This document shows positions 544 to 60,500 of a stretch of 64,000 bases of DNA, piece by piece (position 1 is the stretch's first letter; every line of letters starts with the position of its first letter). A program made the translations under genes and the position numbers. The notes below the pieces were generated by a model. It did not search any database. It was not told the DNA's origin and worked only from the letters and a program-made list of their open reading frames with translations. Source of the stretch: Actinocatenispora rupis (GTDB taxonomy: Bacteria; Actinomycetota; Actinomycetes; Mycobacteriales; Micromonosporaceae); contig NZ_BOMB01000032.1 in NCBI RefSeq assembly GCF_016861975.1, positions 115,912 to 179,911 of the forward strand, written 5' to 3'.

Positions 544-1740
544 ATGAGAGTTGCCCTCGGACTCCGGAACCGCGACGTACGCCTGCTGCTCCTCGGCGGT
601 ACGGTGTCGCAGCTGGGCTCGATGCTGCTCGTGGTGGCCGTTCCGTACCAGGTGTTCCGGGTGACCGGCTCCACGGTGGCGACCAGCCTGGCGCTCGCGC
701 TGGAGGCCGTACCGGCGATCCTGGTCGGGCCGTGGGCCGGCGCGCTCATCGACCGCTGGCACCGCCGCACGGTGTTGATCCTGGCGAACCTCGGCGCCGC
801 CGCCGGTGTCGCCCTGATGCTGTGCGGCACCACCCCCGACCGGCTTCCCCTGCTGTACCTGGGACTCGTGGCCGAACAGGTCGCGGCGGCGTTTCTGCGG
901 CCCGCGTCCACCGCGCTGCTGCCGGCCGTCGCGGGTACCGGGCCGAACCTCGCCGCCGCGAACTCGGCCTTCGCGTTCGCCGTCGGCGTCGTACGACTCG
1001 CCGGTCCCCCGCTCGGCACCCTGCTGCTGTCGGTCGGCGGGTTCGGCGCGGCCGTCGCCGCCGACGTCGCCAGCTACCTCGTCCCGGCCGCGCTGACCGT
1101 TGCGCTGCAACGGATCCCCGCACCGCGACGGACCGGTACCGGGGCCTGGCAGGTGGCGCGCGAGCTGCGCGACGGCGTCCGGCTGCTCGCGGGTTCCCGG
1201 CTGCTGCGCGGCATGCTCGCCACCACCTGGGCGTACTGGACGGCCAACGCGGCGCTCACCGCCCTGCTCGTCCCCTTCGTCGTACGGCGCCTGCACAGCC
1301 CCGGGCAGGACGTCGGGTACCTCGTCAGCGCCCTCGGCGTCGGGTACCTGGTCGGCTCGGCCGCGAGCAGGCTGGTCGTCGGCCGGCACCCCACCCGTAC
1401 CGTGCTGGCCGGCGCCTACCTCGCCGTCGGCGCGGCGTTTCTCGGCATGTTCCACGCGCCGAACATGCCGGTCGCCGCCGCGTTCACCGCGCTGGCCGGC
1501 GTTCCCGGCGCGATCGCGATGGTCGCCACGCAGCACCGGATCCAGGCCGACGTCGACGGTACGGTCCTCGGCCGGGTCAGCGCCGGCTTCGCCACCAGCG
1601 ACGCCCTCGCCGCCGTCACCGGCGCCGCGCTCGCGCCGGCGTGCGTCGCGCTCGTCGGGCTCGGCGGCACGCTCACCGTGTTCAGCGTGGTCGTGGTCGT
1701 CACCGCCGCGGCGGTCCCGCTCCTCCTCCCCCGCCCGTGA
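544..1740 (+). CDS. MFS transporter (12-TM, enterobactin-exporter-like)
   Basis: A 398-residue polytopic membrane protein. The N-terminus (LRNRDVRLLLLGGTVSQLGS, then a hydrophobic helix ending VPYQVFRVTGS) and the cytoplasmic loop WAGALIDRWHRRTVLI match the EntS/MFS_3 type of major facilitator, usually proton-driven exporters of siderophores or drugs. Twelve hydrophobic stretches spread over the full length, the normal size for the family. The substrate cannot be told from sequence. The ATG at 544 is preferred over longer in-frame options because the family N-terminus begins there and a -10 box lies seven bases upstream. The gene is divergent from the XRE regulator and convergent with the next MFS gene, with a hairpin between them. 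Confidence 0.88.
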   Translation: MRVALGLRNRDVRLLLLGGTVSQLGSMLLVVAVPYQVFRVTGSTVATSLALALEAVPAILVGPWAGALIDRWHRRTVLILANLGAAAGVALMLCGTTPDRLPLLYLGLVAEQVAAAFLRPASTALLPAVAGTGPNLAAANSAFAFAVGVVRLAGPPLGTLLLSVGGFGAAVAADVASYLVPAALTVALQRIPAPRRTGTGAWQVARELRDGVRLLAGSRLLRGMLATTWAYWTANAALTALLVPFVVRRLHSPGQDVGYLVSALGVGYLVGSAASRLVVGRHPTRTVLAGAYLAVGAAFLGMFHAPNMPVAAAFTALAGVPGAIAMVATQHRIQADVDGTVLGRVSAGFATSDALAAVTGAALAPACVALVGLGGTLTVFSVVVVVTAAAVPLLLPRP

Positions 1741-1743
1741 GCC

Positions 1744-1768
1744 GGAACCCTTTCGTACCAAGGGAAAC
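1744..1768. repeat. Dispersed 25-bp palindrome, copy in a convergent gap
   Basis: GGAACCCTT, seven bases, then AAGGGAAAC: a near-perfect dyad four bases after the stop codon of the MFS gene. It belongs to a family of about 20 related palindromes in the window (see findings). Confidence 0.55.
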
Positions 1769-1854
1769 GGGGTCGGTCCGCGCGCACGTCCGGCGCTGCT
1801 CCGCCCCGGACCCACCGTCGTACGCGACTGCGCCACGCGGGACGCCCCGCACGA

Positions 1855-1885
1855 CCCGCGGTACGACAGCGGGCGGTACCGCGGG
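1855..1885. terminator. Bidirectional hairpin terminator between convergent MFS genes
   Basis: A 10-bp perfect stem, CCCGCGGTAC (1855-1864) pairing with GTACCGCGGG (1876-1885), with an 11-base loop. It ends one base before the stop codon of the minus-strand gene. No U-tract follows, as is usual in actinobacteria. Confidence 0.55.
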
Positions 1886-1886
1886 G

Positions 1887-3323: not shown

Positions 3324-3337
3324 CAGGCAAACTCCAT

Positions 3338-3358
3338 CTGTAACTATTGGTGTTGCAG
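3338..3358. promoter_or_regulatory. Rrf2 operator, transporter copy
   Basis: CTGTAAC-N7-GTTGCAG on the plus strand. Read on the minus strand it is CTGCAAC-N7-GTTACAG, the same two arms and spacing as the site at 3884-3904. It lies 15 bases upstream of the transporter start codon. Confidence 0.75.
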
Positions 3359-3422
3359 ATTGGTCCGGAAGAAGCGGAGGGCACGTCGCCCTCCGCCAGT
3401 ACGCCTCCGTCCGGCGCGCCCC

Positions 3423-3854: not shown

Positions 3855-3883
3855 CACCACGCACCTCCGACCCCACGCCGATA

Positions 3884-4683: not shown

Positions 4684-4689
4684 CCCGCC

Positions 4690-4712
4690 GATCCCTTGTA
4701 CCGCAAGGAATC
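4690..4712. repeat. Dispersed palindrome copy between convergent ends
   Basis: GATCCCTTG, five bases, CAAGGAATC: a 9-5-9 dyad with one mismatch, between the TetR remnant stop and the P-type ATPase stop. It may work as a terminator here, but the same motif also occurs inside genes. Confidence 0.55.
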
Positions 4713-4726
4713 AGCGCACGGCAGCG

Positions 4727-7453
4727 TCAGGGCCGCGCGGTACGGGCGGTGCGGCGCGCGACGGCCTTGCCGGTCTCCCACAGCATCAGCAACGCCAGCG
4801 GCGGTACCAACGCCCACATGAACTGCATCGCGTCGAGCCGAACCGTACCGAGCAGGTGCCGGAACGCGTCGAGCTGGGTGACGAGCACGGCCAGCACGAA
4901 CTCGCCGAGCAGCGCCCAGTTCATGTACCGGCTGTTGAAGGTGTCGGGCGTCAGCGCGCTGTCGGTCTCGCTGCGGCACTCGACGGCGGCCACCAGCAGG
5001 CACAGCGCGAACGCGGTGAGCGCGATGGAGCTGCCGACCTCGACGCTGCCGTACCGGAGGCGGCCGACGGTGATCATCGACAGCAGGCCGACCGTGACGG
5101 CGAGGCCGACCAGGCCCGCGGTGAGCATCACGCCGGTCGTGAGTACCGACTCGCCGCGGGGCCGGGGGCGGCGCGCCATCAGGCCGGGGCTCTCCCGGTC
5201 GAAGCCGAGCGCGAAGCCGAACGGCGCGTTGACGACGAAGTGGATCCACAGCACCTGCGCCGGGGTGAACGGTTCGCCGGCCGCGATGTTCAGCAGCGTC
5301 GCGCCCAGGAACGTCAGCACGAACACCACCAGCAGGATCAACACGAACCGGATGTACTTGGTGAGGTTGTCGTAGATCTTCCGGCCCTGCCGTACGGCGA
5401 ACACGATGGTGGCGAAGTTGTCGTCGGACAGGATCATCCGGCCAGCGTTCTTCGCCACCTCCGTACCGGTGCCCATGGCGACACCGATGTCGGCGGACTT
5501 GATCGCCGGCGCGTCGTTCACGCCGTCGCCGGTCATCGCCACCACGTGTCCCTTGCGCTTCAACGTTTCCGCGAGCAGTACCTTGTGCTCCGGGGTGACG
5601 CGGCCGACGACGCCGATGCCGTCGATGTGCGCGAGTCGTTCGGTGTCGGACAGGGCGGCGAAGTCGGTGCCCAGGATCGCCTCACCGGGAATGCCGACCT
5701 GCTTGGCGATCGCGGCGCCGGTCGTGACGTCGTCGCCGGTGACCATCCGGACCCGGATGTGCGCGGCGTGCGCGTCGGCCACCGCGGCACGCGACTCGGC
5801 GCGCGGCGGGTCCACCATGCCGACGAGGCTGGTGATCCGCAGCCCGCTGACGTAGCCGAGCAGGTCGCCGTTCGGGTCGAACCGCGACGGGTCGATGTCG
5901 CGGGTGGCGGCGGCCATGACGCGCTGCCCGGCGGCGGCCATGCGCTCCAGGTTGCGCTGGGCACGGTCGGCGAGGTCGGCGTCCCACGCGATGCTGCGGC
6001 CACCCGACAACGCCGTCGCCGTACGGGCCATCACGGCGGGCGCGGCGCCCTTCACGAAGCAGCGCACCACCCGGCGCCCGATCCCGTCGACGGCCTCGTT
6101 GAACGTCGCCATCAGCTTGTACGCCGGGTCGAACGGCAGCACCGCGACCCGGGGCAGCGCCGTACGGGTGGCCTCGACGTCGATGCCGGCCTTGTGCCCG
6201 AGTACGAGCAGGGCCGCCTCGGTCGGGTCGCCGACCACCTGACCGTCGGCGAGCCGCGCGTCGTTGGCCACCAGGTACGGCAGGACCGCGTCCTCGATCG
6301 TCGCCGTGGACCCCGCCGCGTGCTGGACACCCCCGTCGAGCGAGTACCCCTCCCCCGAGACCGTGTACCGGTCGGTCGGGTCGAGTACCTCCACGACCGT
6401 CATCTGGTTCATGGTGAGGGTGCCGGTCTTGTCGGCGTTGATGGCGGAGGTGAAGCCGAGCGTCTCGACGGACGGCAAGTCCTTGACGATGGCGTTCCTG
6501 CCGGCGAGTTCGACGCCGCCGAGCGACAGGATCGTCTGGGTCACCGTGGGCAGCGCCTCCGGGATGGCGGCGATCGCCAGCGCCACCGCGCTGATGAACA
6601 GCGTGTCCCACGCCTCGCCGCGGCTGCGCCCGAGTACGAACATCACGATCATCGTGAGGCCGGCGGCGGCGGCGATCCACAGCGTGAGCCGGTTGAGTTC
6701 GCGCGTCAGCGGCGTCTGTTCGGGCACGGTCGTGGACAGCATCCCGGAGATACGGCCGAGTTCGGTACTGGCGCCGGTCGCGGTGACGATCATGACGCCG
6801 CTGCCGCGGGTGACGGGCGTGTTGATGAACGCCATGTTCGTCTGGTCCCCGGGTACCAGGCGCTCGCCGAACAGCGCGCCGACCTCCTTGGCGACCGGCG
6901 CGCTCTCGCCGGTGAGCGACGACTCGTCGATCTCCAGCGCGTGCGCCGCGACGACCCGCCCGTCGGCCGGTACCTGGTCGCCGGCGGCGATCAGCACGAC
7001 GTCGCCGACGACGAGCTGGTCCGCGGGGACCTCCCGGTCGGTACCGCCGCGGCGGACCCGGGCGGTCGTGCGGGTCATCGACCGGAGCGCGTTCATGGCG
7101 CTCTCGGCCTTGCCCTCCTGCCGCAGCCCGACCAGCGCGTTGAGTACGGTCAGCGCGAACAGCAGCGCGGCGGTGCCCCACTGGGTGATCAGCAGCGACA
7201 CGACCGCCGCGGCGAGCAGGATGACCTGCATGTAGCTGCGGTACTGGTCGAGGAACCGGCGCCAGCGCGGCGTCGGCTCCTCCTCGGGCAGCGCGTTCGG
7301 GCCGTTCGCGTCGAGCAGTTCGGCGGCACGCTCGGGCGGCAGCCCCACGTTCACGTCCACGCCGAACGCGTCGGCCACCTCGGCCGGCAGCCGCGCGTAC
7401 CACTCGCCGGCCTGGGCCGGGTGACCCGGCCGTACGACGTGTTCGGCGACCAT
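4727..7453 (-). CDS. P-type cation-transporting ATPase (Ca2+-ATPase-like, P2 type)
   Basis: A 908-residue ion pump. Domains in order: N-terminal cation-ATPase region (about 15-75), actuator domain with LTGES, a helix with IAAIPEALPTVT (the PE(A/G)LP ion-site helix), the phosphorylation site DKTGTLT, the nucleotide-binding domain, the hinge TGDGVNDAPAIKSADIGVAM, and a C-terminal group of helices. This layout is that of calcium/cation-exporting P2A pumps and the usual length is about 900. The ATG at 7453 follows GGAGG by seven bases; a longer frame to 7693 has low-complexity residues and is rejected. A SnoaL-like gene lies just upstream on the same strand. Exact ion specificity is inferred only. 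Confidence 0.9.
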   Translation of the reverse strand: MVAEHVVRPGHPAQAGEWYARLPAEVADAFGVDVNVGLPPERAAELLDANGPNALPEEEPTPRWRRFLDQYRSYMQVILLAAAVVSLLITQWGTAALLFALTVLNALVGLRQEGKAESAMNALRSMTRTTARVRRGGTDREVPADQLVVGDVVLIAAGDQVPADGRVVAAHALEIDESSLTGESAPVAKEVGALFGERLVPGDQTNMAFINTPVTRGSGVMIVTATGASTELGRISGMLSTTVPEQTPLTRELNRLTLWIAAAAGLTMIVMFVLGRSRGEAWDTLFISAVALAIAAIPEALPTVTQTILSLGGVELAGRNAIVKDLPSVETLGFTSAINADKTGTLTMNQMTVVEVLDPTDRYTVSGEGYSLDGGVQHAAGSTATIEDAVLPYLVANDARLADGQVVGDPTEAALLVLGHKAGIDVEATRTALPRVAVLPFDPAYKLMATFNEAVDGIGRRVVRCFVKGAAPAVMARTATALSGGRSIAWDADLADRAQRNLERMAAAGQRVMAAATRDIDPSRFDPNGDLLGYVSGLRITSLVGMVDPPRAESRAAVADAHAAHIRVRMVTGDDVTTGAAIAKQVGIPGEAILGTDFAALSDTERLAHIDGIGVVGRVTPEHKVLLAETLKRKGHVVAMTGDGVNDAPAIKSADIGVAMGTGTEVAKNAGRMILSDDNFATIVFAVRQGRKIYDNLTKYIRFVLILLVVFVLTFLGATLLNIAAGEPFTPAQVLWIHFVVNAPFGFALGFDRESPGLMARRPRPRGESVLTTGVMLTAGLVGLAVTVGLLSMITVGRLRYGSVEVGSSIALTAFALCLLVAAVECRSETDSALTPDTFNSRYMNWALLGEFVLAVLVTQLDAFRHLLGTVRLDAMQFMWALVPPLALLMLWETGKAVARRTARTARP

Positions 7454-9766: not shown

Positions 9767-9918
9767 CGGCGCGAACCCGCGGGCCCGTTCGTGCGTCGGC
9801 GAGCCGCAGGACGGGACCCGTCGCCGAAGTCGGTACGACGCAGTGGAGCGCAGACCGGCGGTGGACGGCGCCTGCGCGGTACCGGGCTGGCCGCGACGCA
9901 CGCGGCGGAGGACGTGAC

Positions 9919-9942
9919 AACCGTTGCGGTGAAAGGGATCCG
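9919..9942. repeat. Dispersed palindrome copy at the 3' end of the DUF952 gene
   Basis: AACCGTTGCGG, then TGAAAGGGATCCG: an imperfect copy of the dispersed palindrome, directly abutting the stop codon of the minus-strand gene at 9943. Confidence 0.4.
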
Positions 9943-34292: not shown

Positions 34293-34318
34293 GGATCCGT
34301 TGCGGCGCAACGGAAATC
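34293..34318. repeat. Dispersed palindrome copy filling a convergent gap
   Basis: GGATCCGTTGCGG then CGCAACGGAAATC, ending at the base before the TetR stop codon and starting two bases after the previous stop. The CCGTTGCG/CGCAACGG core is perfect. It may work as a terminator in this place. Confidence 0.6.
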
Positions 34319-39508: not shown

Positions 39509-39895
39509 GGCGGTGTGCCCTTCCGGTCGTCCGTTGCCGCTGCGTGCTGTCTTACGGCATCCGGACGGACCCGCGTCGGTGAACGGCGCGCACCCGGCCG
39601 TGTGCCCGACCCGACCTCGGCCGGTCGGCCAGGAGCGCCCGTCCCAACAGGCATCGCACGGTACCCGGCGCCGCGCGGTCCACGAGACACCCCGTACCGG
39701 CGCGGATTTCCGTTGTACCGCAAGGGATCCGCCCCGCGTCGATGTCGCGTCCGCCGGGCCACCGGGCCGCGCTCACGACACCGCTGGCGGCTGGCCGTCG
39801 ACCCGCGCGCGGGTACCACTCCGCGGCGCTGGCCCCACCCCGTCCGGGGGGTACGCGTCGCGCCGCGCGGTCCCCCGTCGGCGAGCCGACCGCGG
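39509..39895. other. Gap without a recognised gene
   Basis: A 387-base gap, with a dispersed palindrome copy at 39704-39731. Frames crossing it are arginine/proline rich and match nothing known to me. Confidence 0.5.
39704..39731. repeat. Dispersed palindrome copy, intergenic
   Basis: GGATTTCCGTTG, TACCG, then CAAGGGATCCG: among the clearest copies, with arms TCCGTTG/CAAGGGA and GGAT.../...ATCC. It is not next to a gene end, so a terminator role is unlikely for this copy. Confidence 0.55.
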
Positions 39896-41880: not shown

Positions 41881-42402
41881 TCACGGTCGTCCGGCGGCGC
41901 GGCGACCGACGTGCGCGACGGCGAGTCGTATCAGTTCCGGGAAGCGGAGGTTGGTCGTGCCGCCCGCGGTGGCACGGCTCCCCAGCTCGTCGACCCCCGG
42001 CTGCGCGCCAACCCCGACCGTGACCCAGTACGGTTCGTCCGGGCGCGTCCACACCTGCGCGGGTGACAGACCGCTGTTGCCGTCACTCCCGCCCGGCGAC
42101 ACGTACTCGGTGGGTTCCGGTTGCGGCACCGCCGTCGGCAACGCCGGGACCAGCGTGGCACGCGTCGGTGCGCTCCACTGCGCGCGCCCGCGCCGCGCTC
42201 GCCTTCCACCGCGACACCCTTGCCGGCGGAACACCATGCGGTGCCACGACCCGGCTCGCCCCGACGGCAGTTCCCTGTCGGCCACGAGCGCGATGCTGTC
42301 GTACGACGGGGCCACGCGCAGACGACCCGTGGTTACGACAGCCGTCGACGGCGGGCACCCCGCGCACCACCCCCATCGTCTCGCGGAAGCCTTGCGGGCC
42401 AC
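41881..42402 (-). CDS. Hypothetical protein, doubtful N-terminus
   Basis: A frame of up to 173 codons. The C-terminal 70 residues look like real protein (LSPAQVWTRPDEPYWVTVGV, TTNLRFPELIRLAVAHVGRR), while the first half is arginine-rich and may not be translated. A start inside, near LPTAVPQPEPTEYVSPGG, is possible. No family is recognised. It lies directly downstream of the lysozyme-like gene on the same strand (gap 15 bases), so it could be a partner, for example an immunity or chaperone protein. Confidence 0.35.
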   Translation of the reverse strand: MARKASARRWGWCAGCPPSTAVVTTGRLRVAPSYDSIALVADRELPSGRAGSWHRMVFRRQGCRGGRRARRGRAQWSAPTRATLVPALPTAVPQPEPTEYVSPGGSDGNSGLSPAQVWTRPDEPYWVTVGVGAQPGVDELGSRATAGGTTNLRFPELIRLAVAHVGRRAAGRP

Positions 42403-42417
42403 GGTTCCCTTGTCCCG

Positions 42418-43989: not shown

Positions 43990-44456
43990 GGTTCACTCCC
44001 GCTCGATGCCCGTACTGTGCCGGGCTCTGGTCTGGGTTTCGCTGTGCCGACACGGTCCTGACGGCGTCGGGGGTGCAGTCCCGAGCCAGCCACGGACGAC
44101 GCGACGAGGGACGAGCGCGAGGAGTACCGGCGCGTGCTTTTGTGGTCGGATCCATCGAATCGTCGCGGGACCGCCGTCGCGTCCCTATCGTCGCGGGAAC
44201 GTGCGGGCGTTGTGCACGACACAATTACCCAATTCGGCCGCGTCGTGACGCTTCCTGCTCCTCGGCCGACGCGTACGGAGGGCGTCGGGAACCCTTGGCA
44301 CGTACGCGATCGCGCTCGTGGAGGTGCGCGTTCCGTCGCCGGGTGGTCGACCTGTGGTGACGGTGTCCCGGGTTCGTGCCAGAGGGCGGCGGGACGGCCC
44401 GAGCCGGCGAGGCGCGGCGGCAGACTCGTGCCGTACCCGGTCGGATGAGGAGTGAC
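43990..44456. other. Upstream region of the lysozyme gene, no gene recognised
   Basis: A 467-base stretch. It contains the dyad TTGTG-CACGA-CACAA near 44208-44222 next to an AT-richer patch (AATTACCCAATT), which may hold the promoter of the lysozyme-like gene. Frames here show no family motif. Confidence 0.4.
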
Positions 44457-47173: not shown

Positions 47174-48694
47174 ATGTCTGCGCGCAGCCGACCACCGGCG
47201 TTCGTCAGCGGTCGGCGACGGTTCCTCGGTGTGCTGGGTGCGGGTGCCGTCGTCGCCGGGGTCGGCGGCGTGGCGGCGGTGTCCCGGATCCGTTCCGCCG
47301 CAAGGGTTCCGGCCGTCATCCCGGCGCTGGCGCAGTGGACGGCGGGTTCCGCGGACTTCACGCTCGGCCGTACCCCGAGGATCGTCGTCGCCAGCGGTGC
47401 ACTGGCACGAACCGCCACGCTGCTCGCCGCCGACGTACGGGCGCTGACCGGTGTCCACGCGACGGTCGCCACCGGATCGCCGGACGACGGGGACATCCGG
47501 CTCTCGTGGGACCGCGGGCTGCCCGCGCGGGCGTACCGGCTGGATGTGCGGGGTGTGCTCACCGTCAGCGGTGCGACCGACGCGGCCGTCTTCCACGGCA
47601 CGCGGACGGTGGCGCAGCTGCTCCGCCAGGGCCGGACCGTTCCGGGCGGCAGCGGCACCGACGCGCCCGCGTACCCGGAGCGTGGGGTCGTGCTCGACGT
47701 GGCGCGCAAGTACTACTCCGTGGACTTTCTCAAGTGGCTGATCCGGGAGCTGGCGTGGCTCAAGTACACGTCGCTGCACCTGCATCTGACCGACACGCAG
47801 GCGTACCGGATCGAGTGCGCGGGCCGGCCGGACGTGGTGGCCGCGCGGCACTACACGCGCCGGGAGATGGCGGAGCTGGTGTCGTACGCCGCGGACCGGC
47901 ACGTGACGGTCGTCCCGGAGATCGACATGCCCGGGCACATGAACCCGATCCTGCGCCGGTACCCGGAGTTGGCGCTGCGCCGGGCGAACGGGTACCTGAG
48001 CCTCGACCTGTCGCAGTGGGACGCCGCGTGCGGGCTGGCGCGGTCGTTCCTCGACGAGTACCTGGAGCTGTTTCCGGGGCCGGAGTGGAGCATCGGCGCC
48101 GACGAGTGGCTGTCCACCGCGGACCTGGCGGCTTTCCCCCAGCTGGAATCGGCCGCGCGGAGCCGTTTCGGGCCGGACGCCGGCGCCCGCGACTTGGAGT
48201 ACGGCTTCGTGAACTGGCTCGGCGACCACCTGCGCGCGCACGGCAGGCGGCCCAGGATCTGGAACGACCAGCTCGTCCCCGACGGCACCGTCGCGGTCGA
48301 CCGCACCGTCACCATCGACCACTGGTACGGCTCGGCCGCGCCCACCGCCGCCGATCTCGACGCCCAGGGGTACTCGCTGGTCAACTGCAACTCCGACGTC
48401 CTGTACGGCGACACCGACAACGACGCCTACCCGGATCCGGCGACCATCTACGAGGAGTTCGCCGTCCACCGGTTCAGCGGCGGGCAGCGCATCCCGGCCG
48501 ACAGCCCGCGCCTGCGCGGCGCGCAGCTGGCGATCTGGTCGGACACCGACAACGACGTGACCGAACGCCACGTCGCCGACCGGATCGGGGATCCGCTCCG
48601 CGCCCTGGCCCAGATCGCTTGGGGCTCAAGGAAACCCGCCGCCACGTACGACCGGTTCGCCCGGCTGGTCGCGACGGTCGGTTCGCCGCCGTGA
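47174..48694 (+). CDS. Glycoside hydrolase family 20 (beta-N-acetylhexosaminidase), Tat-exported
   Basis: A 506-residue enzyme. A twin-arginine signal peptide (GRRRFLGVLGAGAVVAGVGG, ending near residue 45) sends it outside folded. A GH20b-type N-terminal domain (60-160: FTLGRTPRIVVASGALARTA) is followed by the TIM barrel: RGVVLDVARKYYSVDFLKWL, SLHLHLTDTQAYRIE, VVPEIDMPGHMNPILRRYPE, and the catalytic pair Asp-Glu in EWSIGADEWLS, with WNDQLVPDG, TIDHWYGSA later. It removes terminal GlcNAc or GalNAc from chitin or glycan chains. A dispersed palindrome copy lies inside its 5' end (47286-47310). Confidence 0.9.
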   Translation: MSARSRPPAFVSGRRRFLGVLGAGAVVAGVGGVAAVSRIRSAARVPAVIPALAQWTAGSADFTLGRTPRIVVASGALARTATLLAADVRALTGVHATVATGSPDDGDIRLSWDRGLPARAYRLDVRGVLTVSGATDAAVFHGTRTVAQLLRQGRTVPGGSGTDAPAYPERGVVLDVARKYYSVDFLKWLIRELAWLKYTSLHLHLTDTQAYRIECAGRPDVVAARHYTRREMAELVSYAADRHVTVVPEIDMPGHMNPILRRYPELALRRANGYLSLDLSQWDAACGLARSFLDEYLELFPGPEWSIGADEWLSTADLAAFPQLESAARSRFGPDAGARDLEYGFVNWLGDHLRAHGRRPRIWNDQLVPDGTVAVDRTVTIDHWYGSAAPTAADLDAQGYSLVNCNSDVLYGDTDNDAYPDPATIYEEFAVHRFSGGQRIPADSPRLRGAQLAIWSDTDNDVTERHVADRIGDPLRALAQIAWGSRKPAATYDRFARLVATVGSPP

Positions 48695-49401: not shown

Positions 49402-50634
49402 TCATTCGGGTGATCCGTCGTCGGCCGCCGCCGGCCGGGCATGCCGGAAGAGGGCGTACAGGGTCAGGTCGTAGGCGATCCGCAGCCCGCCGGCGAGTAC
49501 GAAGGGCAGCCCGATCCAGCCGAGCTGCAGCAGGGCGGCGGCGGCGAGCGGCGCGACCGGGCGCGCGGCGTACCGGGCGATGTTGGTGTAGGCGGCGGCG
49601 GTGACGCGCTCGCCGGGGTCGACCATCGTCACCACGTACGCCTGGCGGGCGGGAACGTCCATCTGGGACAGCGCGGCGCGGGCCAGCAGCAGCGCGACCG
49701 CGATCGGAAGCGTTGGGGCACAAGGGATCGCGGCGAGGAGCAGGTTGGCCGGCAGGTGGGTGAACACCATCGTGTTGAGCAGTCCCAGCCGCGCGCCGAG
49801 CCGGCCGGCCAGCACGCTGGACGCGGCCTGGAGCAGCCCGGCGGCGAAGAACACGACACCCATCGACTGCGGCGACGCCCCGTACTCGCGGGCGAGCCAG
49901 TACACGAGGAACGACTGGACGACGAAGCCGCCGGCGAACGCGTCGACGGCGAACAGCGCGGCGAGCCGCCGTACGGTGGGGCGGGAGCGGACCAGGCGCC
50001 CGCGGGATCCGTGTCGTACCAACGGTTCCACGGCACCGGTGAGCCGGGTCGCGACGAGCGCGGCGAGGAGCGCCGACGCGGACAGGACGAGCAGCCACCG
50101 CTGGCCGGCCGGCACGTGCGGCCACACTCCGCGCAGCGCCTCGGGCCCGCCGGCGAGCAGCGCCCCGAGCGACCCGCTCAGGTACGCGACCGCGTTGTAC
50201 CGGCCGAAGACGCGGATGCGGTCGGGCGCCGGCGCGGTGCCGATCATCGCCTGTTCGAGCGTGGTGACCGGCCCGGACTCGTTGGGGTCGGTGGACAGCG
50301 TGCCGCTCAGCGCGGCGAGCACCAGCAGCGGGAACGAGTCGGTCAGGGCGAACACCGCGGCGGCGACCGCCATCACCACCAGCAGCGCGACGTAGCTGCG
50401 GCGCCGGCCGAACCGGTCCGCGTACCTGGCGGCGAGCAGCGAGGAGCCGGCCATCCCGGCGAGCATCGCGGCGAACACGGCGCCGACCCGGGTGGCGGAC
50501 AGCCCGTCGGCCGCCAGCGCGGACCCGAGCAGGACGCTGCCGAAGCCGTACCCGAAGGCGCGCAGGCCCTGGACGGCGAGGATGCACCGCAGGTCGCGTA
50601 CGGCGTCGACGGACAACGGCGCGGCGTACGGCAT
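49402..50634 (-). CDS. MFS transporter
   Basis: A 410-residue, 12-helix transporter. The N-terminus RDLRCILAVQGLRAFGYGFG, the loop ARYADRFGRRRSYVALLV and LSGTLSTDPNESGPVTTLEQ (a loop also seen in related actinobacterial MFS proteins of unknown substrate) place it in the major facilitator superfamily. It is divergent from a GlxA-type AraC regulator 71 bases away, a likely controller. Two dispersed palindrome copies lie inside the gene (49706-49729 and 50005-50029). Confidence 0.87.
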   Translation of the reverse strand: MPYAAPLSVDAVRDLRCILAVQGLRAFGYGFGSVLLGSALAADGLSATRVGAVFAAMLAGMAGSSLLAARYADRFGRRRSYVALLVVMAVAAAVFALTDSFPLLVLAALSGTLSTDPNESGPVTTLEQAMIGTAPAPDRIRVFGRYNAVAYLSGSLGALLAGGPEALRGVWPHVPAGQRWLLVLSASALLAALVATRLTGAVEPLVRHGSRGRLVRSRPTVRRLAALFAVDAFAGGFVVQSFLVYWLAREYGASPQSMGVVFFAAGLLQAASSVLAGRLGARLGLLNTMVFTHLPANLLLAAIPCAPTLPIAVALLLARAALSQMDVPARQAYVVTMVDPGERVTAAAYTNIARYAARPVAPLAAAALLQLGWIGLPFVLAGGLRIAYDLTLYALFRHARPAAADDGSPE

Positions 50635-53815: not shown

Positions 53816-53986
53816 CGGCGCTCGACACCCGACGATGCGGGGAGACCGCACCGCCATCCGCGCTGATCTACGGCCACCGTACGGTCGATCTCGACGGCGT
53901 CCCGCCGGCTACCGGGCGGTGGCCGACCGCGCGGCGCTGGCAGTAATGGTCGCGCCGTGACCGGCTGACGCGGCACCGCGCGGACC

Positions 53987-54010
53987 GTTCCCTTGCGGCG
54001 CAACGGTTCC
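53987..54010. repeat. Dispersed palindrome copy, intergenic
   Basis: GTTCCCTTGCGG then CGCAACGGTTCC, just before the cupin remnant. Arms GTTCC(C)TTGCG/CGCAA(C)GGTTCC are not complementary at every position; the CTTGCG/CGCAAC core and flanking GTTCC blocks match the consensus. Confidence 0.5.
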
Positions 54011-54458: not shown

Positions 54459-54559
54459 GGGTCATGCCGCAGAATCGTCGGCCGCGGGCAAGAACCCGCG
54501 GGAACGGGGAACCTGTGGCTGACGTACGAACGGCTGCCGACACGACCAGGGTCGGGCCA

Positions 54560-54583
54560 GATCCCTTGCAGGACAACGGAAGT
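54560..54583. repeat. Dispersed palindrome copy in the rph leader
   Basis: GATCCCTTGC, AGGA, CAACGGAAGT: an imperfect copy inside the 250-base leader of the rifampin phosphotransferase mRNA. Confidence 0.4.
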
Positions 54584-54622
54584 ACGGGTAACAGCACGGC
54601 GGAGCGCGCCGTACGACCGGGT

Positions 54623-54648
54623 GGTCCCGTTGCGGGGCAACCGAATCC
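54623..54648. repeat. Dispersed palindrome copy in the rph leader, second
   Basis: GGTCCCGTTGCGG then GGCAACCGAATCC, 62 bases before the GTG start. Two palindromes in one leader could form RNA hairpins that influence translation. Confidence 0.4.
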
Positions 54649-54709: not shown

Positions 54710-57310
54710 GTGGGCGAGCAGTACGTGGTGGGTCTGCGGGAGATCGACCGGACGTGGATCGCGGACGCGGGGGGCAAGGGCGCGCAGCTGGGTGAGCTGA
54801 CCCGGATCGACGGCGTACTGGTGCCGGACGGCTTCTGCGTGACGACGGCCGCTTTCCGCCGGGTCGTGGCGGAGGTACCGGGGATCGACGAGCGACTCGA
54901 CGAGCTGGCCTGCGTGGCACCGGACGACCGGGCGGCGGTCCGTACGCTCAGCGCGGAGATCCGCCGCACCATCGAGGATGTCGCGATCCCGGACGACCTG
55001 GCTGCCGCGATCACGGACGCGCTGGCCGGACTCGGCAGCGACACCGCCTGTGCCGTACGGTCCAGCGCCACGGCGGAGGACCTGCCGACCGCGTCGTTCG
55101 CCGGTCAGCAGGACACGTACCTGAACGTCGTGGGTGTGGGCGAGGTGCTGCGGCACGTCGGCCGGTGCTGGGCGTCGCTGTTCACCGAGCGAGCCGTGGC
55201 GTACCGGCAGCGTGCCGGGATCGACCATCGGGCGGTGCACATGGCCGTGGTCGTGCAGCGGATGGTGGTCCCGGAAGCCGCCGGGATCCTGTTCACCGCC
55301 GACCCGGTCACCTCGAACCGTAAGGTCGCCTCGGTGGAGGCGAGCTACGGTCTCGGCGAGGCCCTGGTGTCCGGCCGCGTGGACCCGGACGTGTGGACCG
55401 TACGCGACGACGCGATCGTCACCAGAACCGTTGGTACCAAACGGTTCGCCATCGAGGCCGTGCCGTCCGGCGGGACCGGGGACGTGCCGGTCGACCCCGG
55501 ACGGCGGTCCCGGCCGTCGCTCACCGACGCGCAGGTGCGCCAGCTGGTACGGCTCGGGCGGCGGATCGCCGCGCGCTTCGGCCGTCCGCAGGACATCGAG
55601 TGGTGCCTGACCGGCGACGGGTTCCGGATCGTGCAGAGCCGGCCGATCACGACGCTGTTCCCCGTACCCGGGACCGACGACGACACCACCCACGTGTACG
55701 TCTCCGTCGGCCACCAGCAGATGATGACCGACGCGATGACGCCGCTCGGGCTGTCGTTCTGGCAGATGACGACGCCCCGGCCGATGGCCGAGGCCGGCGG
55801 GCGGCTGTTCGTGGACGTGACGCCGATGCTGGCCGCGCCGGCGAGCCGTACCGGGCTGCTGGACGCTTTGGGCCGCTCGGATCCGTTGATCGGGGACGCG
55901 CTGCGCACGCTGCTCGACCGCGGTGACGTCGTCGCGCCGGTACCGGACGACGGTCCCGCGTGGACGCCGCCGGGCGGTGGCGCCGCCAAACCGGTCGAGA
56001 CCGACCCGGCCATCGTCACCGACCTCATCGACACCAGCCGCGCGTCGCTCGACGCGGCACGCCGCGAGCTTCGGACGAAGTCCGGGCCCGACCTGTTCGA
56101 CGCCATCCGCGCGGACATCCAGAAACTGCGCCGGATCCAGTCCCGGCCGCGCAGCATGCAGGTCATCATGGCGGGGATGCAGGCCGCGTGGTGGCTCAAC
56201 GACCACCTCCGGGAATGGCTGGGCGAGCCGAACGTGGCCGACACGCTCACCCAGTCCGTCCCGAACAACGTGACCGCGGAGATGGGCCTGGCGCTCGTGG
56301 ACGTCGCCGACGCGATCCGCCCGTACCCGGAGGTGGTGGGGTTCCTGCGCGACGCCGGGGACGACCTCGTACTCGCGCGACTTGCCGACGTCGAGGGTGG
56401 AACCGTTGCGCGCCAAGCGATCGAGGGCTGGCTGGACCGGTACGGGATGCGCTGCGTCGGCGAGATCGACATCACCCGGCCGCGCTGGGCCGAACGTCCG
56501 GGCATGCTCGTACCGCTGATCCTGGGCAACATCGCGAACTTCGAGCCGGGCGCCGGCGCGCGCCGCTTCGACGAGGGACGGCGTGCGGCGGAGGCCAAGG
56601 AACGCGACGTGCTGACGCGGCTGCGCACCCTGCCCGGCGGGGAGGCGAAGGCCGCCGAGACCAGGCGGATGATCGACCGGGTCCGCACGTTCAGCGGCTA
56701 CCGCGAGCACCCCAAGTACCACATGATCAGCCGGTACTTCCTGTACAAGCAGGCGTTGTCGGGCGAGGCCGCGCGGCTGGTGGACCGCGGCGTGCTCGAC
56801 TCCCCCGACGACGCCCACTTCCTGCGGTTCGACGAACTGCACGACGTCGTACGCACCGGCCGGGTGGACCGCGCGCTGATCGACCGGCGCCGGGCGGAGT
56901 TCGCGTCGTACCAGGCGCTCACGCCACCCCGGGTACTCACCTCGGACGGCGAGGTCGTCGCCGGTTCGTACCGGCGGGACGACGTGCCGGACGGTGCGCT
57001 CGCCGGGCTGCCGGTGTCCGCCGGGACCGTCGAGGGCCGCGCCCGCGTCGTACTCGACATGGCGCAGGCCGACCTCGAACCCGGCGACATCCTCGTCACC
57101 ACGCACACCGACCCCAGCTGGACGCCGCTGTTCGTCGCCGTCGCCGGCCTGGTCACCGAGGTCGGCGGGCTGATGACACACGGCGCGGTGATCGCCCGGG
57201 AGTACGGGCTGCCGGCCGTGGTGGGTGTCGTCGACGCCACCCGGCTGATCGTTGACGGGCAACGGATCCGCGTGCACGGCACCGACGGGTACGTGGAACT
57301 GCTGTCGTGA
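54710..57310 (+). CDS. rph: Rifampin phosphotransferase (PEP synthase-like)
   Basis: An 866-residue, three-domain enzyme that moves the beta-phosphate of ATP to the C21 hydroxyl of rifamycins, inactivating them. ATP-binding domain (1-315): GGKGAQLGELTRI, AVRSSATAEDLPTASFAGQQ, GILFTADPVTSN, and DIEWCLTGDGFRIVQSRPIT at its end. Rifampin-binding domain (about 330-755) has the family-like segments TPLGLSFWQMTTPRPMAEAG and RKL-type helices. The C-terminal His domain contains TEVGGLMTHGAVIAREYGLP with catalytic His824, matching His825 of the Listeria enzyme. The length equals known RPH. GTG 54710 is the start (GGAAGGG upstream). A rifamycin-associated element precedes it. Confidence 0.92.
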   Translation: MGEQYVVGLREIDRTWIADAGGKGAQLGELTRIDGVLVPDGFCVTTAAFRRVVAEVPGIDERLDELACVAPDDRAAVRTLSAEIRRTIEDVAIPDDLAAAITDALAGLGSDTACAVRSSATAEDLPTASFAGQQDTYLNVVGVGEVLRHVGRCWASLFTERAVAYRQRAGIDHRAVHMAVVVQRMVVPEAAGILFTADPVTSNRKVASVEASYGLGEALVSGRVDPDVWTVRDDAIVTRTVGTKRFAIEAVPSGGTGDVPVDPGRRSRPSLTDAQVRQLVRLGRRIAARFGRPQDIEWCLTGDGFRIVQSRPITTLFPVPGTDDDTTHVYVSVGHQQMMTDAMTPLGLSFWQMTTPRPMAEAGGRLFVDVTPMLAAPASRTGLLDALGRSDPLIGDALRTLLDRGDVVAPVPDDGPAWTPPGGGAAKPVETDPAIVTDLIDTSRASLDAARRELRTKSGPDLFDAIRADIQKLRRIQSRPRSMQVIMAGMQAAWWLNDHLREWLGEPNVADTLTQSVPNNVTAEMGLALVDVADAIRPYPEVVGFLRDAGDDLVLARLADVEGGTVARQAIEGWLDRYGMRCVGEIDITRPRWAERPGMLVPLILGNIANFEPGAGARRFDEGRRAAEAKERDVLTRLRTLPGGEAKAAETRRMIDRVRTFSGYREHPKYHMISRYFLYKQALSGEAARLVDRGVLDSPDDAHFLRFDELHDVVRTGRVDRALIDRRRAEFASYQALTPPRVLTSDGEVVAGSYRRDDVPDGALAGLPVSAGTVEGRARVVLDMAQADLEPGDILVTTHTDPSWTPLFVAVAGLVTEVGGLMTHGAVIAREYGLPAVVGVVDATRLIVDGQRIRVHGTDGYVELLS
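55424..55448. repeat. Dispersed palindrome copy inside rph
   Basis: GAACCGTT-GGTACCA-AACGGTTC (55425-55447) is a perfect 8-7-8 dyad inside the coding sequence. It shows that the motif is kept even within codons. Confidence 0.6.
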
Positions 57311-57316
57311 CGCCGA

Positions 57317-57894: not shown

Positions 57895-57958
57895 CCACCG
57901 AGGCTGCGGGAACCGGCCGGCTTCGGCCGCGTTCCGTGCTGCTGAGCCGGATCCGGAG

Positions 57959-58408: not shown

Positions 58409-58456
58409 GCGCGCGATCGTCGCACGCTCCCGAAACGCCCTGCCACCCCGCGGATA

Positions 58457-58660
58457 TCAGCCGCGGCGGGGGTCCGCGCCGGCCTCCTTGACGACCCGGT
58501 CGCCGACCTCCAGCTGTTTCCACAGGTCGCGCGCGACCTTGACGTTCCGGACGTCGCCGCCGTCGAGTCGTACGTCGAGCTTGCGGTAGAGGTTCGCGCC
58601 GTCGTACATGGCGCGGGACTTCTTCACGACGACCCCGCTCCAGGCGTCCTCGCCGGCCAT
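58457..58660 (-). CDS. Small conserved actinobacterial protein of unknown function
   Basis: A 67-residue protein: EDAWSGVVVKKSRAMYDGAN, LYRKLDVRLDGGDVRNVKVA, DLWKQLEVGDRVVKEAGADP. Beta-rich with an OB-like or SH3-like look and a conserved-seeming VVKKSR and GDRVVKEAG; similar short proteins are widespread in Streptomyces-related genomes (DUF7489-like from memory, unverified). GGAG lies six bases before the ATG, so it is a true gene. It is divergent from the TetR gene and lies near that operator. Confidence 0.65.
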   Translation of the reverse strand: MAGEDAWSGVVVKKSRAMYDGANLYRKLDVRLDGGDVRNVKVARDLWKQLEVGDRVVKEAGADPRRG

Positions 58661-58691
58661 CGGCCACTCCTTCGTCACGACTACCGGGCGA

Positions 58692-58720
58692 GGCGAAGCT
58701 TATCACCGATAACCTTCGCC
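58692..58720. promoter_or_regulatory. TetR operator, 29-bp extended palindrome
   Basis: GGCGAAG-c-TTATC-ACC-GATAA-c-CTTCGCC: two nested perfect arms of 7 and 5 bases with one mismatched pair between them. The TTATC-N3-GATAA core resembles classic tetO. It lies between the small protein gene and the TetR gene. Confidence 0.75.
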
Positions 58721-58750
58721 GACCCGGGTACTCCCGGGTACGGTGCGGTG

Positions 58751-59377
58751 GTGCCCCAGCAGCGACGGACGGACCGCGGCGCGATCGTGGCCGCCTCGAT
58801 CGCCGTACTCGACGAGCGGGGCCTGGACAAGCTGTCGCTGCACGCCGTCGCCGCGCGGCTCGGCGTGGCGCAACCGGCGCTGTACCACCATTTCCGGGAC
58901 AAGAGCGAGATCCTGGCCGCCGTCGCCGCCGAGGTGCTCGACCGGCACCACACCGAACGGCTGCCGCACCCCGGCGACGACTGGCGCGACCTGCTCGTCC
59001 GGTACGCGCAGAGCCTGCGCCGCGCGATGCTCGCCGTACGCGACGGTGCCCGGCTGCTGGCCCTCGCCGGCCCCCGGGCACCCCAGCTGGCGAACGCGGT
59101 CGCGCAGGTGTCGTTCCTGGAGGCGCACGGGTTCACCGGCGCCGACGCGATCCTGGCGTACGTCGCGGTCTCCCGGTACACGATCGGCGCGACGCTCGAA
59201 CAGCAGACCGCCCGCGACGGTGGCGCGATCCGGTTCCCCGACGGCGACGCGCCGTCCGCCGAATCCGCCCACCTCCTCGACCTCGCGGCACAGGTCGCCA
59301 AGCTCGGCCCCGACCACGAGTTCGCCGTCGGCCTCACCGCGCTGGTGCACGGCCTCGCCCCGCTCCGCCACCCCTGA
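58751..59377 (+). CDS. TetR-family regulator (TetR_C-type)
   Basis: A 208-residue regulator. HTH: GAIVAASIAVLDERGLDKLS, LHAVAARLGVAQPALYHHFR, DKSEILAAVAAEVLDRHH. The C-terminal domain resembles that of tetracycline repressor (PHPGDDWRDLLVRYAQSLRR; DGARLLALAGPRAPQLANAV; LAYVAVSRYTIGATLEQQTA; FAVGLTALVHGLAPL), so it may bind a tetracycline-like or aromatic drug. It starts at GTG six bases after a TACGGT -10 box, probably leaderless. A 29-bp palindrome lies upstream. No exporter or monooxygenase gene remains next to it. Confidence 0.9.
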   Translation: MPQQRRTDRGAIVAASIAVLDERGLDKLSLHAVAARLGVAQPALYHHFRDKSEILAAVAAEVLDRHHTERLPHPGDDWRDLLVRYAQSLRRAMLAVRDGARLLALAGPRAPQLANAVAQVSFLEAHGFTGADAILAYVAVSRYTIGATLEQQTARDGGAIRFPDGDAPSAESAHLLDLAAQVAKLGPDHEFAVGLTALVHGLAPLRHP

Positions 59378-59387
59378 CCGCGTACGC

Positions 59388-59421
59388 GAAGGGCGCCGAA
59401 CCCCGGGGATCGGCGCCCTTC
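59388..59421. terminator. Bidirectional hairpin terminator
   Basis: GAAGGGCGCCGA (59388-59399) pairs perfectly with TCGGCGCCCTTC (59410-59421), a 12-bp stem with a 10-base loop, between the convergent TetR and DUF4097 genes. Confidence 0.75.
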
Positions 59422-59425
59422 GTAC

Positions 59426-60100
59426 TCAGAGGCTGTGGGCGGTGATGTCGCCGTGGGCCGTGGTGGCGTGCACGTTCAGCGCGGCGTTCGCGCCGTCGGT
59501 GTTGGTCAGCGAGTTCCTGATCCGGCCGTGCGCGCTGCCCGCGTCCAGCGAGGCGGACACGCCGGCGGCCGCGCCGACCGACACGCTGCCCGCGTCGGTA
59601 CGCAGGACCACGCTGCCCCGGACCGCCTCCTCGATGGTGATGTCGCCGCTGCTGGTACGCACCTCGGCCGGGCCGGTCAGCCGGCCGATCGTGATGTCGC
59701 TGGCGGAGCTGGTGATCCGGGCCGCCGCGACCTCGCCGAGCGCGATCGGGCCGTGCGCGCTGGTGTAGACGACCTCGCCCAGCGGCCCGACGGTACGGAA
59801 CTCCGCGCTCGCGGTGGTCGCCTCCACCGTCGAGCCGGCCGGCAGCTGCACGGTCACCTCGACCGCACCGGACGGGCCCAGGATCTGGCTGGCCTTCTTC
59901 GCCACCGACCGGATCCGCACCGCCCCCTCCGCGTACTCCACGGTCGTGTTGTCGGCCAGCTTCACGTCACGGTTCTTCGACGCGTCCGCCGGGCGTACCT
60001 CGACGGTGGTGTCGGCGCGCTCCGTTGCGGTGAACAGGATCCGGCCCGCCGGAACGTCCAGGTTGACGGTGATCGCGGCCGGCGTGGTGAAACGCTGCAT
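59426..60100 (-). CDS. DUF4097-family beta-helix protein
   Basis: A 224-residue protein of repeated short beta strands: ITVNLDVPAGRILFTATERA, TVEVRPADASKNRD, GAVRIRSVAKKAS, then turns such as EVRTSSGDITIEEAVRGSVV and SAHGRIRNSLTNTDGANAAL, and ends with the HATTAHGDITAHSL motif. The SSGDI and AHGDI repeats mark DUF4097, a putative adhesin-like beta-helix often encoded next to regulators. No signal peptide, so it is probably cytoplasmic. AGGAG lies nine bases before the ATG. Role unknown. Confidence 0.85.
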   Translation of the reverse strand: MQRFTTPAAITVNLDVPAGRILFTATERADTTVEVRPADASKNRDVKLADNTTVEYAEGAVRIRSVAKKASQILGPSGAVEVTVQLPAGSTVEATTASAEFRTVGPLGEVVYTSAHGPIALGEVAAARITSSASDITIGRLTGPAEVRTSSGDITIEEAVRGSVVLRTDAGSVSVGAAAGVSASLDAGSAHGRIRNSLTNTDGANAALNVHATTAHGDITAHSL

Positions 60101-60500
60101 CGTGCTCAACTCCTGCGTTCGTGTTCGTCCTTGACGCCCACGACGATCGCCGCCCGTACTGACACGGCACGGCCAGCGCGCTGACGCGACCCCTGACACG
60201 GCGCGGTGCCGGTCAGGTGGTGGTGACGGCCGGACCTGGGCGCCGCGGACTGCATCGCCGCGAACCGGCGGTTCGGGCTGCGGGTGCCCGAGCCGCACGA
60301 CCGGGCGCCGCGCGCCGCCCCACTCGGCGATCCACGAACGACCCCGCTGGCTCGCCGGCACCCCGCCGGAACCGTTGACGCCAGCCGGATTCCGCACCGA
60401 CCGCCCGGACAGCGTCAATCCGATGCTGGCCGCGTGGTGGCTCGGCGTACGGCACCGTCACCGGTACGCCGCAGGCCGACGGAGTCCGGGCGCCGGGGTG
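60101..60500. other. Gap with possible decayed coding sequence
   Basis: 400 bases. Plus-strand stretches in two frames look protein-like (AADCIAANRRFGLRVPEPHD; TPAGFRTDRPDSVNPMLAAW), with no start or common frame, so this may be the remains of a gene. A dispersed palindrome copy is at 60368-60394. No family can be named. Confidence 0.35.

What the first reader, a model, noticed from the sequence alone, without database searches (positions are those of the whole stretch)
1096..60394. A dispersed imperfect palindrome, GGAWCCSTTG-N5-7-CAASGGWWCC, occurs about 20 times in and between genes
Reading by eye I find copies at 1096-1117, 1744-1768, 4690-4712, 9919-9942, 26789-26811, 27598-27620, 34293-34318, 39704-39731, 40824-40849, 47286-47310, 49706-49729, 50005-50029, 53987-54010, 54560-54583, 54623-54648, 55424-55448, 56399-56422, 57247-57270, 60019-60044 and 60368-60394. 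All share a TTG/CAA pair flanked by CC(C/G) and (C/G)GG and outer GGAW/WWCC blocks. Some lie between convergent genes and may be terminators, but many lie inside codons in different reading frames, so protein sequence does not explain them. One copy per about 3 kb suggests a chromosome-wide site for a DNA-binding protein, nucleoid organiser, methylase or recombinase.
Basis: seen in the sequence. Interest (0 to 1): 0.82.

Follow-up and report, generated by a model that had tools for sequence, protein, structure and literature searches.

The report
Genome-wide palindromic protein-docking site
A 25-letter palindrome occurs hundreds of times along the chromosome of a bacterium (apparently an Actinocatenispora), inside genes and especially just behind them, far more often than chance, codon use or the encoded proteins explain, and it is likely the docking site of a still unknown paired DNA-binding protein that would help to organise the chromosome.

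Summary
The motif is a 25-bp dyad, GGAWCCSTTG-N5-CAASGGWTCC; spacer 5 dominates, 6 is minor. In 1.64 Mb of the 7.83-Mb genome, 131 places lie within 3 mismatches; 150 shuffled-arm palindromes give 0.76 on average. With proteins fixed and synonymous codons permuted, coding copies number 65 against 0.55. The whole genome holds 176 places within 2 mismatches, extrapolating to about 700 within 4. The two arms vary independently, also between convergent genes, so this is not an RNA hairpin but looks like a double-stranded site for a protein dimer. Intergenic copies concentrate between convergent genes (43 against 6.9 expected), abut stop codons and thin out near gene starts. The coding copies that could be aligned arose by substitution, not insertion. 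Three congeners carry 11-18 places within 2 mismatches, most other family genomes 0-2. One copy, in a glycosyltransferase gene, is kept by four species, with changes only at the motif's degenerate positions. Best reading: binding sites of an unidentified dimeric chromosome-organising protein. Protein and function are inferred, not shown. Six literature searches found no description.

The parts
1093..1117 (.). motif copy, 3 mismatches, in CDS 544..1740 (MFS-type)
1744..1768 (.). motif copy, 3 mismatches, convergent gap, 3 nt behind a stop codon
3945..3969 (.). motif copy, 4 mismatches, tandem gap (missed by reader)
4689..4713 (.). motif copy, 3 mismatches, tandem gap, 13 nt from a gene 3' end
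5546..5570 (.). motif copy, 3 mismatches, coding (missed by reader)
9917..9941 (.). motif copy, 3 mismatches, convergent gap, 1 nt from a stop codon
26786..26810 (.). motif copy, 3 mismatches, coding (Peptidase_M19 gene)
27595..27619 (.). motif copy, 4 mismatches, coding (Peptidase_M20 gene)
34293..34317 (.). motif copy, 3 mismatches, fills a 28-nt gap between two convergent stop codons; not seen behind the orthologous stop in G001 and G002
39706..39730 (.). motif copy, 3 mismatches, tandem gap
42385..42409 (.). motif copy, 4 mismatches, convergent gap, 8 nt from a gene end (missed by reader)
44288..44312 (.). motif copy, 4 mismatches, tandem gap (missed by reader)
47286..47310 (.). best copy of the window, 1 mismatch, coding (Glyco_hydro_20 gene)
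48612..48636 (.). motif copy, 4 mismatches, coding (missed by reader)
49706..49730 (.). motif copy, 2 mismatches, coding (MFS gene)
50005..50029 (.). motif copy, 2 mismatches, coding (MFS gene)
53986..54010 (.). motif copy, 2 mismatches, tandem gap
54559..54583 (.). motif copy, 4 mismatches, tandem gap
55424..55448 (.). motif copy, 3 mismatches, coding (PPDK_N gene); congener orthologs align without gaps and lack the motif
56399..56423 (.). motif copy, 2 mismatches, same gene; congener orthologs lack it (small offsets in some alignments)
57245..57269 (.). motif copy, 4 mismatches, same gene; congener orthologs align without gaps and lack it
60368..60392 (.). motif copy, 4 mismatches, tandem gap

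Best explanation
The dispersed 25-bp dyad GGAWCCSTTG-N5-CAASGGWTCC is most likely the double-stranded binding site of one dimeric, probably winged-helix, chromosome-organising protein, which would occupy several hundred places, by preference in the space right behind stop codons and between convergent genes. Shown: the motif, its number, its excess over codon-preserving and shuffled-arm nulls, the independence of the two arms, its placement relative to genes, origin by substitution for the few copies that could be aligned, and its concentration in one genus. Inferred: that a protein binds it; that the protein is a dimer (two like half-sites at a fixed distance, spacer 5 or 6); that it is winged-helix (the two strongest contacts of an arm, TT at 4-5 and AW at 9-10 bp from the centre, lie half a turn apart, as for a recognition helix in the major groove and a wing in the neighbouring minor groove); that binding bridges or anchors DNA rather than regulating single promoters (sites thin out near gene starts); and that weak selection for a high site number keeps copies inside genes, where turnover is fast. 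The protein itself was not found.
For: Number: 131 places within 3 mismatches and 259 within 4 in 1.64 Mb, against means of 0.76 and 8.1 (maxima 16 and 103) for 150 shuffled-arm palindromes. Coding copies against synonymous-codon permutation (20 runs): 65 against 0.55 (max 3) within 3 mismatches, 149 against 7.2 (max 12) within 4; intergenic 98 against 0.9 within 4. Arms independent: pairing at d=1-12 is 294 against 303.5 (convergent), 760 against 774 (all intergenic), 1027 against 1066 (coding; z -2.9, a slight deficit, which I take to follow from the cut on total mismatches). The profile is much the same in coding and intergenic copies; information 22.3 bits, peaking at A -10, W -9, T -5, T -4. 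Placement of 270 sites against random positions: convergent 43 against 6.9, tandem 57 against 19.8, divergent 11 against 11.1, coding 159 against 231.8. Within-gap null: edge within -3..8 nt of a stop in 21 of 43 convergent (13.5 expected) and 12 of 57 tandem (3.6) sites; within 60 nt of a start 9 of 57 tandem (15.4 expected, p 0.012); for the 11 divergent sites 3 against 4.6, not significant. One copy kept in four species, which differ within it only at the degenerate S, W and N positions.
Against: No binding protein, no binding data and no phenotype; the function is argued from placement alone. Density in 20-kb bins is mildly uneven (variance 4.94, mean 3.2, p 0.0013; 6 of 81 bins empty, 3.3 expected), and contigs could not be placed on a chromosome map. 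Congeners carry a tenth as many copies or fewer, odd for an essential organiser. Six of 8 aligned coding copies are absent from congeners. In the shared glycosyltransferase copy the share of unchanged codons (5 of 7 same-residue codons) is not clearly above that of the gene (190 of 324). 22.3 bits (raised by the mismatch cut) is more than the 13-14 bits that about 700 copies in 7.8 Mb need (own arithmetic), which suggests a driven sequence or a demanding binder.
Confidence: 0.45

Rival explanations
1. Protein roadblock or insulator at gene ends: a dimer bound right behind stop codons stops or separates transcription of neighbouring, above all convergent, genes.
For: Enrichment between convergent genes and abutment to stop codons; 20 of the 25 best copies (1 mismatch or none) are intergenic; in congeners 6 of the 8 intergenic copies among 15 loci read sit 7-10 nt from a stop.
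Against: 159 of 270 copies lie inside genes and are spread evenly along them; a block 0-8 nt behind the stop would halt polymerase before the stop codon is transcribed (footprint size recalled); some gaps already hold a hairpin (by eye).
Confidence: 0.17
2. Uptake- or transfer-type sequence spread by molecular drive: DNA carrying the site enters cells or recombines more readily, so sites accumulate wherever the sequence is free to change.
For: Aligned copies arise by substitution; copies tolerate coding sequence, are densest outside genes and differ tenfold between congeners, as is known for DNA uptake sequences (recalled; PMC1939737 seen as search listing only).
Against: Known uptake sequences are short and not palindromic (recalled); no uptake system was looked for here; drive alone does not predict abutment to stop codons.
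Confidence: 0.13
3. Operator of a global transcription regulator with a very large regulon.
For: Dyad operator-like form; two strong copies 48 bp apart in one divergent gap.
Against: Divergent gaps are not enriched (11 against 11.1) and tandem-gap copies thin out within 60 nt of starts; the divergent pair lies beside what looks like a regulator fragment (my reading of the translation, not searched).
Confidence: 0.08
4. Intrinsic terminator or other RNA hairpin family.
For: Position behind stop codons; in congeners several of the best intergenic copies are palindromes that run 4-8 bases further outward (by eye).
Against: In the own genome arms re-pair no better than shuffled arms in every class, pairing does not extend outward, no T-run on average, many coding copies.
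Confidence: 0.04
5. Self-mark read by a defence or restriction-like system that spares DNA carrying the site.
For: Chromosome-wide spread and fast turnover; only two stretches of the viral-contig collection hold an exact match (not compared with chance).
Against: No such system is known to me for a 25-bp dyad (recall); nothing in the calls points to one.
Confidence: 0.05
6. By-product of codon use, protein repeats or base composition.
For: One reading frame is preferred (85 of 151), in which the motif reads D/E-P-L-x-x-N/K-G-S; most matches in other genera that were read look like this.
Against: Protein-fixed and codon-order nulls fall short about a hundredfold or more within 3 mismatches; all frames and intergenic DNA carry it.
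Confidence: 0.01

Closest known systems
Spaced palindromic motif pairs of Tong et al. 2017 (PMC5217627; abstract, sections 12 and 13 and found passages read)
   Same: Dispersed inverted pairs at a fixed spacing; CGAAA(N)19TTTCG lies in a variety of Mycobacterium genes without a known protein motif; CCTAC(N)19TAGGT and GCTTAT(N)5AAGCG are often between convergent genes; functions unknown.
   Different: Other sequences and lineages; those of its table 7 are mostly intergenic and number 9-125, while here 159 of 270 sampled copies are coding and the genome holds several hundred.
Nucleoid occlusion and macrodomain sites (Noc/NBS, SlmA/SBS, MatP/matS; recalled)
   Same: Palindromic dimer sites spread over a chromosome, also inside genes.
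   Different: Those are 12-16 bp, tens of copies, avoid or mark the terminus, and have a known protein; here 25 bp, hundreds of copies, no domain seen, protein unknown.
HIP1 of cyanobacteria (PMC4390886, search listing and start of abstract only)
   Same: Highly iterated palindrome whose frequency differs greatly between relatives; in coding and non-coding DNA (recalled).
   Different: HIP1 is an octamer, GCGATCGC, linked to methyltransferases; this is a degenerate 25-bp dyad with a free centre.
DNA uptake sequences of Pasteurellaceae and Neisseriaceae (PMC1939737, search listing and start of abstract only)
   Same: Overrepresented genome-wide; in genes too and arising by substitution (recalled).
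   Different: Not palindromic (recalled); tied to competence, which was not examined here.
REP/BIME elements (recalled)
   Same: Palindromic, behind genes, favour convergent gaps.
   Different: REPs are inserted, intergenic and hairpin-forming; here substitution in aligned copies, coding copies, independent arms.

Membership tests
Intrinsic terminator | complementary stem arms beyond the sequence consensus | tested here: not met
   own genome: pairing equals or is slightly below that of re-paired arms; no outward extension; some congener copies do extend (by eye)
Intrinsic terminator | T-run behind the stem | tested here: not met
   T 0.06-0.18 and A at most 0.19 at 13-30 nt from the centre of intergenic copies, both strands pooled
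REP/BIME or other inserted palindrome | inserted relative to orthologs | tested here: not met
   7 of 8 aligned coding copies without gaps, the eighth with balanced 2-nt offsets. Intergenic copies could not be aligned base by base
REP/BIME or other inserted palindrome | extragenic | tested here: not met
   159 of 270 coding
Nucleoid-organiser site (NBS, SBS, matS type) | dyad site for a dimer on double-stranded DNA | tested here: met
   (form of the site only; binding not tested)
Nucleoid-organiser site (NBS, SBS, matS type) | biased position relative to origin or terminus | not testable with these tools
   81 unordered contigs; 0.08-0.22 sites per kb between sampled stretches, mild clumping
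Nucleoid-organiser site (NBS, SBS, matS type) | cognate protein of the family (Noc, SlmA, MatP) | not tested
   no search for these families was made
DNA uptake sequence | very many copies, tolerated in genes, arising by substitution | tested here: met
DNA uptake sequence | preferred uptake by a competence system | not testable with these tools
   needs transformation assays
HIP1 | octamer GCGATCGC and matching methyltransferase | tested here: not met
   the consensus does not contain it; methyltransferases not tested
Global regulator operator | concentration in promoter regions | tested here: not met

The most novel reading that the evidence does not exclude
A bacterial lineage has written a 25-bp protein address hundreds of times over its chromosome by point mutation, also through the middle of genes and against its codon preference, with a tenfold burst in one species: a previously undescribed genome-wide marking or folding system with its own dedicated DNA-binding protein, perhaps one of two in this genome that share the 5-bp spacer.
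Probability: 0.35. Interest if true: 0.85.

Novelty: new variant of a known kind. Interest (0 to 1): 0.64.

Why it matters
To my knowledge few bacterial DNA motifs this long are known in such number inside genes. If a protein reads it, it would be a new kind of chromosome-wide landmark with a cheap, sharp handle: the binder can be fished with a 25-bp duplex. The genus also offers a natural experiment, one species with about ten times as many sites as its congeners, to ask whether such sites spread by selection for chromosome function or by drive.

Tried and rejected
Free iteration of a weight matrix collapsed onto codon periodicity and was dropped; a fixed consensus with mismatch counts was used instead. 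The core CSTTG-N5-CAASG is also frequent in genomes G019 and G021 (366 and 316 against 53 and 33), but most of the 16 loci read there lack the outer blocks, so I do not count them as the same system. Outside the genus the six richest of the family genomes searched have 13-23 matches within 2 mismatches and most have 0-2; of the loci read there (15 loci of 85 matches in five rich genomes, with 17 matches in them; 17 loci of 48 matches in 14 others) 11 of 17 and 12 of 17 matches are coding, mostly frame-2 words, so I do not claim the system there, nor exclude it. Exact matches in the 84,980-genome collection (72 stretches; the own genome may be left out there) look, outside the genus, largely like extended hairpins and shared coding words, judged by eye from the flanks. 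The search tool's reversed-pattern control is weak (it partly contains CTAG, rare in many bacteria by recall), so shuffled-arm, codon and Markov nulls were added. An apparent fall of coding copies with GC3 was mostly circular: with site codons removed it is 9.2, 15.4, 13.2, 12.8, 6.1 per 100 kb. Matches in three genomes of genus g45 looked like an operator but lie in a Prim-Pol-type gene and follow its protein sequence (Pfam was run on one of the three). Two strong copies in a divergent gap of the own genome did not point to a regulator. Synonymous conservation at four further congener sites (34 of 35 codons in sites, 763 of 912 outside) is biased by how the sites were chosen and is not used as proof; a fifth pair was not coding, and the glycosyltransferase set failed in that script (wrong frame picked) and rests. 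Six literature searches gave no description of this motif; 29 papers of the library name the genus, and none of the 25 listed has it in title or abstract.
Full report
WHAT IS THERE. The window (73.5% G+C) lies at C32:115912-179911 of a 7.83-Mb genome in 81 contigs. A genome that the tool calls same-genus (G001) has contig numbers that match, at all four exact sites, the records of Actinocatenispora comari NUM-2625 (contigs 25, 64, 101, 132), and the one contig length checked agrees (54,880 bases); NCBI places this genus in Micromonosporaceae.

THE MOTIF. In the window SSTTG-N5-CAASS occurs 14 times against 0.25 expected; of spacers 0-12 the only other hit is one at 10. The flanks extend it to GGAWCCSTTG-N5-CAASGGWTCC. 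In 1.64 Mb of the own genome (21%, not a random sample: the window's contig C32 plus stretches of contigs seen in earlier hit lists) the counts at 0, 1, 2, 3, 4 mismatches are 5, 20, 37, 69, 128; spacer 6 gives 0, 0, 8, 17, 66, some overlapping spacer-5 sites; spacers 2, 3, 7 and 8 give none up to 3 mismatches, spacers 4 and 9 give two and one. After removing overlaps 270 sites were used: 253 with spacer 5 and up to 4 mismatches, 17 with spacer 6 and up to 3. A scan of all pentamer inverted pairs with spacers 4-45 puts this motif in the eight first places. Whole-genome count within 2 mismatches: 176; with the ratio seen in the sample (253 to 62) about 700 sites within 4 mismatches are extrapolated, of which about 5% would be chance by the nulls below.

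NOT CHANCE, NOT PROTEIN. 150 palindromes with shuffled arms: mean 0.76 and maximum 16 within 3 mismatches, real 131. Coding sequence with proteins fixed and synonymous codons permuted (20 runs): mean 0.55, maximum 3, real 65 within 3 mismatches; 7.2 against 149 within 4. Codon-order shuffle (20 runs): 0.15 against 65. Intergenic Markov-3 (10 runs): 0.9 against 98 within 4. All three frames carry copies. The gene calls come from a codon-usage caller of my own and are approximate.

NOT A HAIRPIN. If RNA or cruciform pairing mattered, changes in one arm would be matched in the other. Observed pairing equals, or in coding copies lies slightly below (z -2.9), that of randomly re-paired arms, in convergent, tandem, divergent and coding copies alike, and does not extend beyond the consensus. 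The two half-sites are thus conserved each for itself, as for a protein dimer on double-stranded DNA (inference). The strongest positions (A -10, W -9, T -5, T -4) suggest a winged-helix dimer (inference).

WHERE. Of 270 sites 43 lie between convergent genes (6.9 expected from random positions), 57 between tandem genes (19.8), 11 between divergent genes (11.1), 159 in genes (231.8). Within the same gaps the site edge abuts a stop codon (-3 to 8 nt) in 21 of 43 convergent and 12 of 57 tandem cases against 13.5 and 3.6 expected (no run of 1000 reached either), and lies within 60 nt of a start in 9 of 57 tandem cases against 15.4 (p 0.012); for the 11 divergent sites the shortage is not significant (3 against 4.6). 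The best copies are the most intergenic: 20 of 25 with 1 mismatch or none. In genes the copies are even along the length. The site-rich coding stretches looked at lie in ordinary genes: NRPS and luciferase-like genes on C10, and a PPDK-type gene of the window. The spread over 81 bins of 20 kb is slightly clumped (variance 4.94, mean 3.2; 6 empty bins, 3.3 expected).

HOW IT ARISES. Eight coding copies could be aligned with congeners: seven without gaps and one with balanced 2-nt offsets; of the seven, six lack the motif in the relative (7-9 mismatches) and one has it. At the 34293 copy, the sequence behind the orthologous stop in G001 and G002 shows no motif. So these copies came by substitution, and most are young or lost elsewhere. 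The shared one lies in a GT4-type glycosyltransferase gene (NCBIfam matches all shown are below their cut-offs; likeness to PimA is recalled). Four species of the genus encode GRAVPLxYNGSVA with GTT CCS TTG NNN TAC AAC GGW TCC; each has the same single mismatch to the consensus (T for A in the outer block) and they differ within the site only at its degenerate positions. Of 28 loci read from other genera, 15 have the recognisable peptide: six with Leu, all coded CTG, nine with Val instead; against the four-species pattern 14 have 4-5 mismatches and one has 2. So the site was made in this genus by synonymous and perhaps one non-synonymous change. Against over-reading: this is a single case, picked because it was conserved, and the share of unchanged codons in it (5 of 7) is not clearly above that of the gene (190 of 324); what is telling is that changes fall only on free positions and that only 2 of the 190 unchanged codons end in A or T, one of them the GTT of the site.

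WHO HAS IT. Of 300 family genomes, the own has 176 places within 2 mismatches and its three congeners 18, 11 and 14. Among the rest the highest are 23, 20, 15, 14, 14 and 13, while the two most sampled genera (g4, g45) mostly have 0-2; the reversed control gave one match in each of two genomes. In 15 loci read from five of the richer outside genomes 11 of 17 matches are coding, mostly frame-2 words, whereas in the 15 best congener loci 8 are intergenic and 6 of these sit 7-10 nt from a stop. Several of the best congener intergenic copies run on as palindromes for 4-8 more bases (by eye), unlike the own genome; this is unexplained.

MECHANISM. I commit to a dimeric chromosome-organising protein (0.45). 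Shown are site, number, independence of arms, placement and, for few copies, origin. Inferred are the protein, its class and its function. The strongest rivals are a gene-end roadblock (0.17) and an uptake- or transfer-type driven sequence (0.13); each has a stated refutation.

KNOWN OR NEW. The nearest printed precedent found is the spaced-motif survey of Tong et al. 2017 (PMC5217627; abstract, sections 12-13 and passages read), which reports other dispersed inverted pairs of unknown function, one of them inside Mycobacterium genes. Six searches found nothing on this motif. Nucleoid-site, uptake-sequence and REP comparisons rest on recall except where a paper listing is cited.

Noticed in passing
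own genome, 1.64 Mb sample, for example L173 near 15844; in the window near 26783 and 26969: A second dispersed palindrome, TGTCC-N5-GGACA (about acTGTCCAYTGTGGACAgt), 31 copies at spacer 5 against 0-3 at the other spacers from 2 to 9, 27 of them coding where five synonymous permutations give 2-6. Same spacer as the main motif; its half recalls the actinobacterial DnaA box (recall, not tested). In 0.4 Mb of congener G002 it occurs 7 times.
   Followed up: partly
L030:9870-10314 and L022:19431-19838: Two arrays, without a called gene, of four to five imperfect motif copies each, 68-189 bp apart, in surroundings that look repeated by eye.
   Followed up: partly
L247, L248, L250, L253 (congeners): Several of the best intergenic congener copies continue as palindromes for 4-8 more bases and sit 7-10 nt behind stop codons, unlike the own genome, where arms vary independently.
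   Followed up: partly
L312, L313, L314: Three genomes of one genus (g45) carry the motif in an alike-placed gene; in L313, the one searched, it is a Prim-Pol gene next to an AAA_25 gene, perhaps a plasmid or integrative replication module; the copy follows the peptide DPLCRNGSD.
   Followed up: partly
window 43400-43975: Long low-complexity stretch of repeats in 3-nt register, read on the - strand probably a Gly-rich repeat protein.
   Followed up: no
window 42437-42532: ARAGORN calls a 96-nt tRNA-Ala (ggc) that overlaps a gene called at 42418-43296 (-); Rfam finds nothing at gathering threshold in the window, so it may be false.
   Followed up: no
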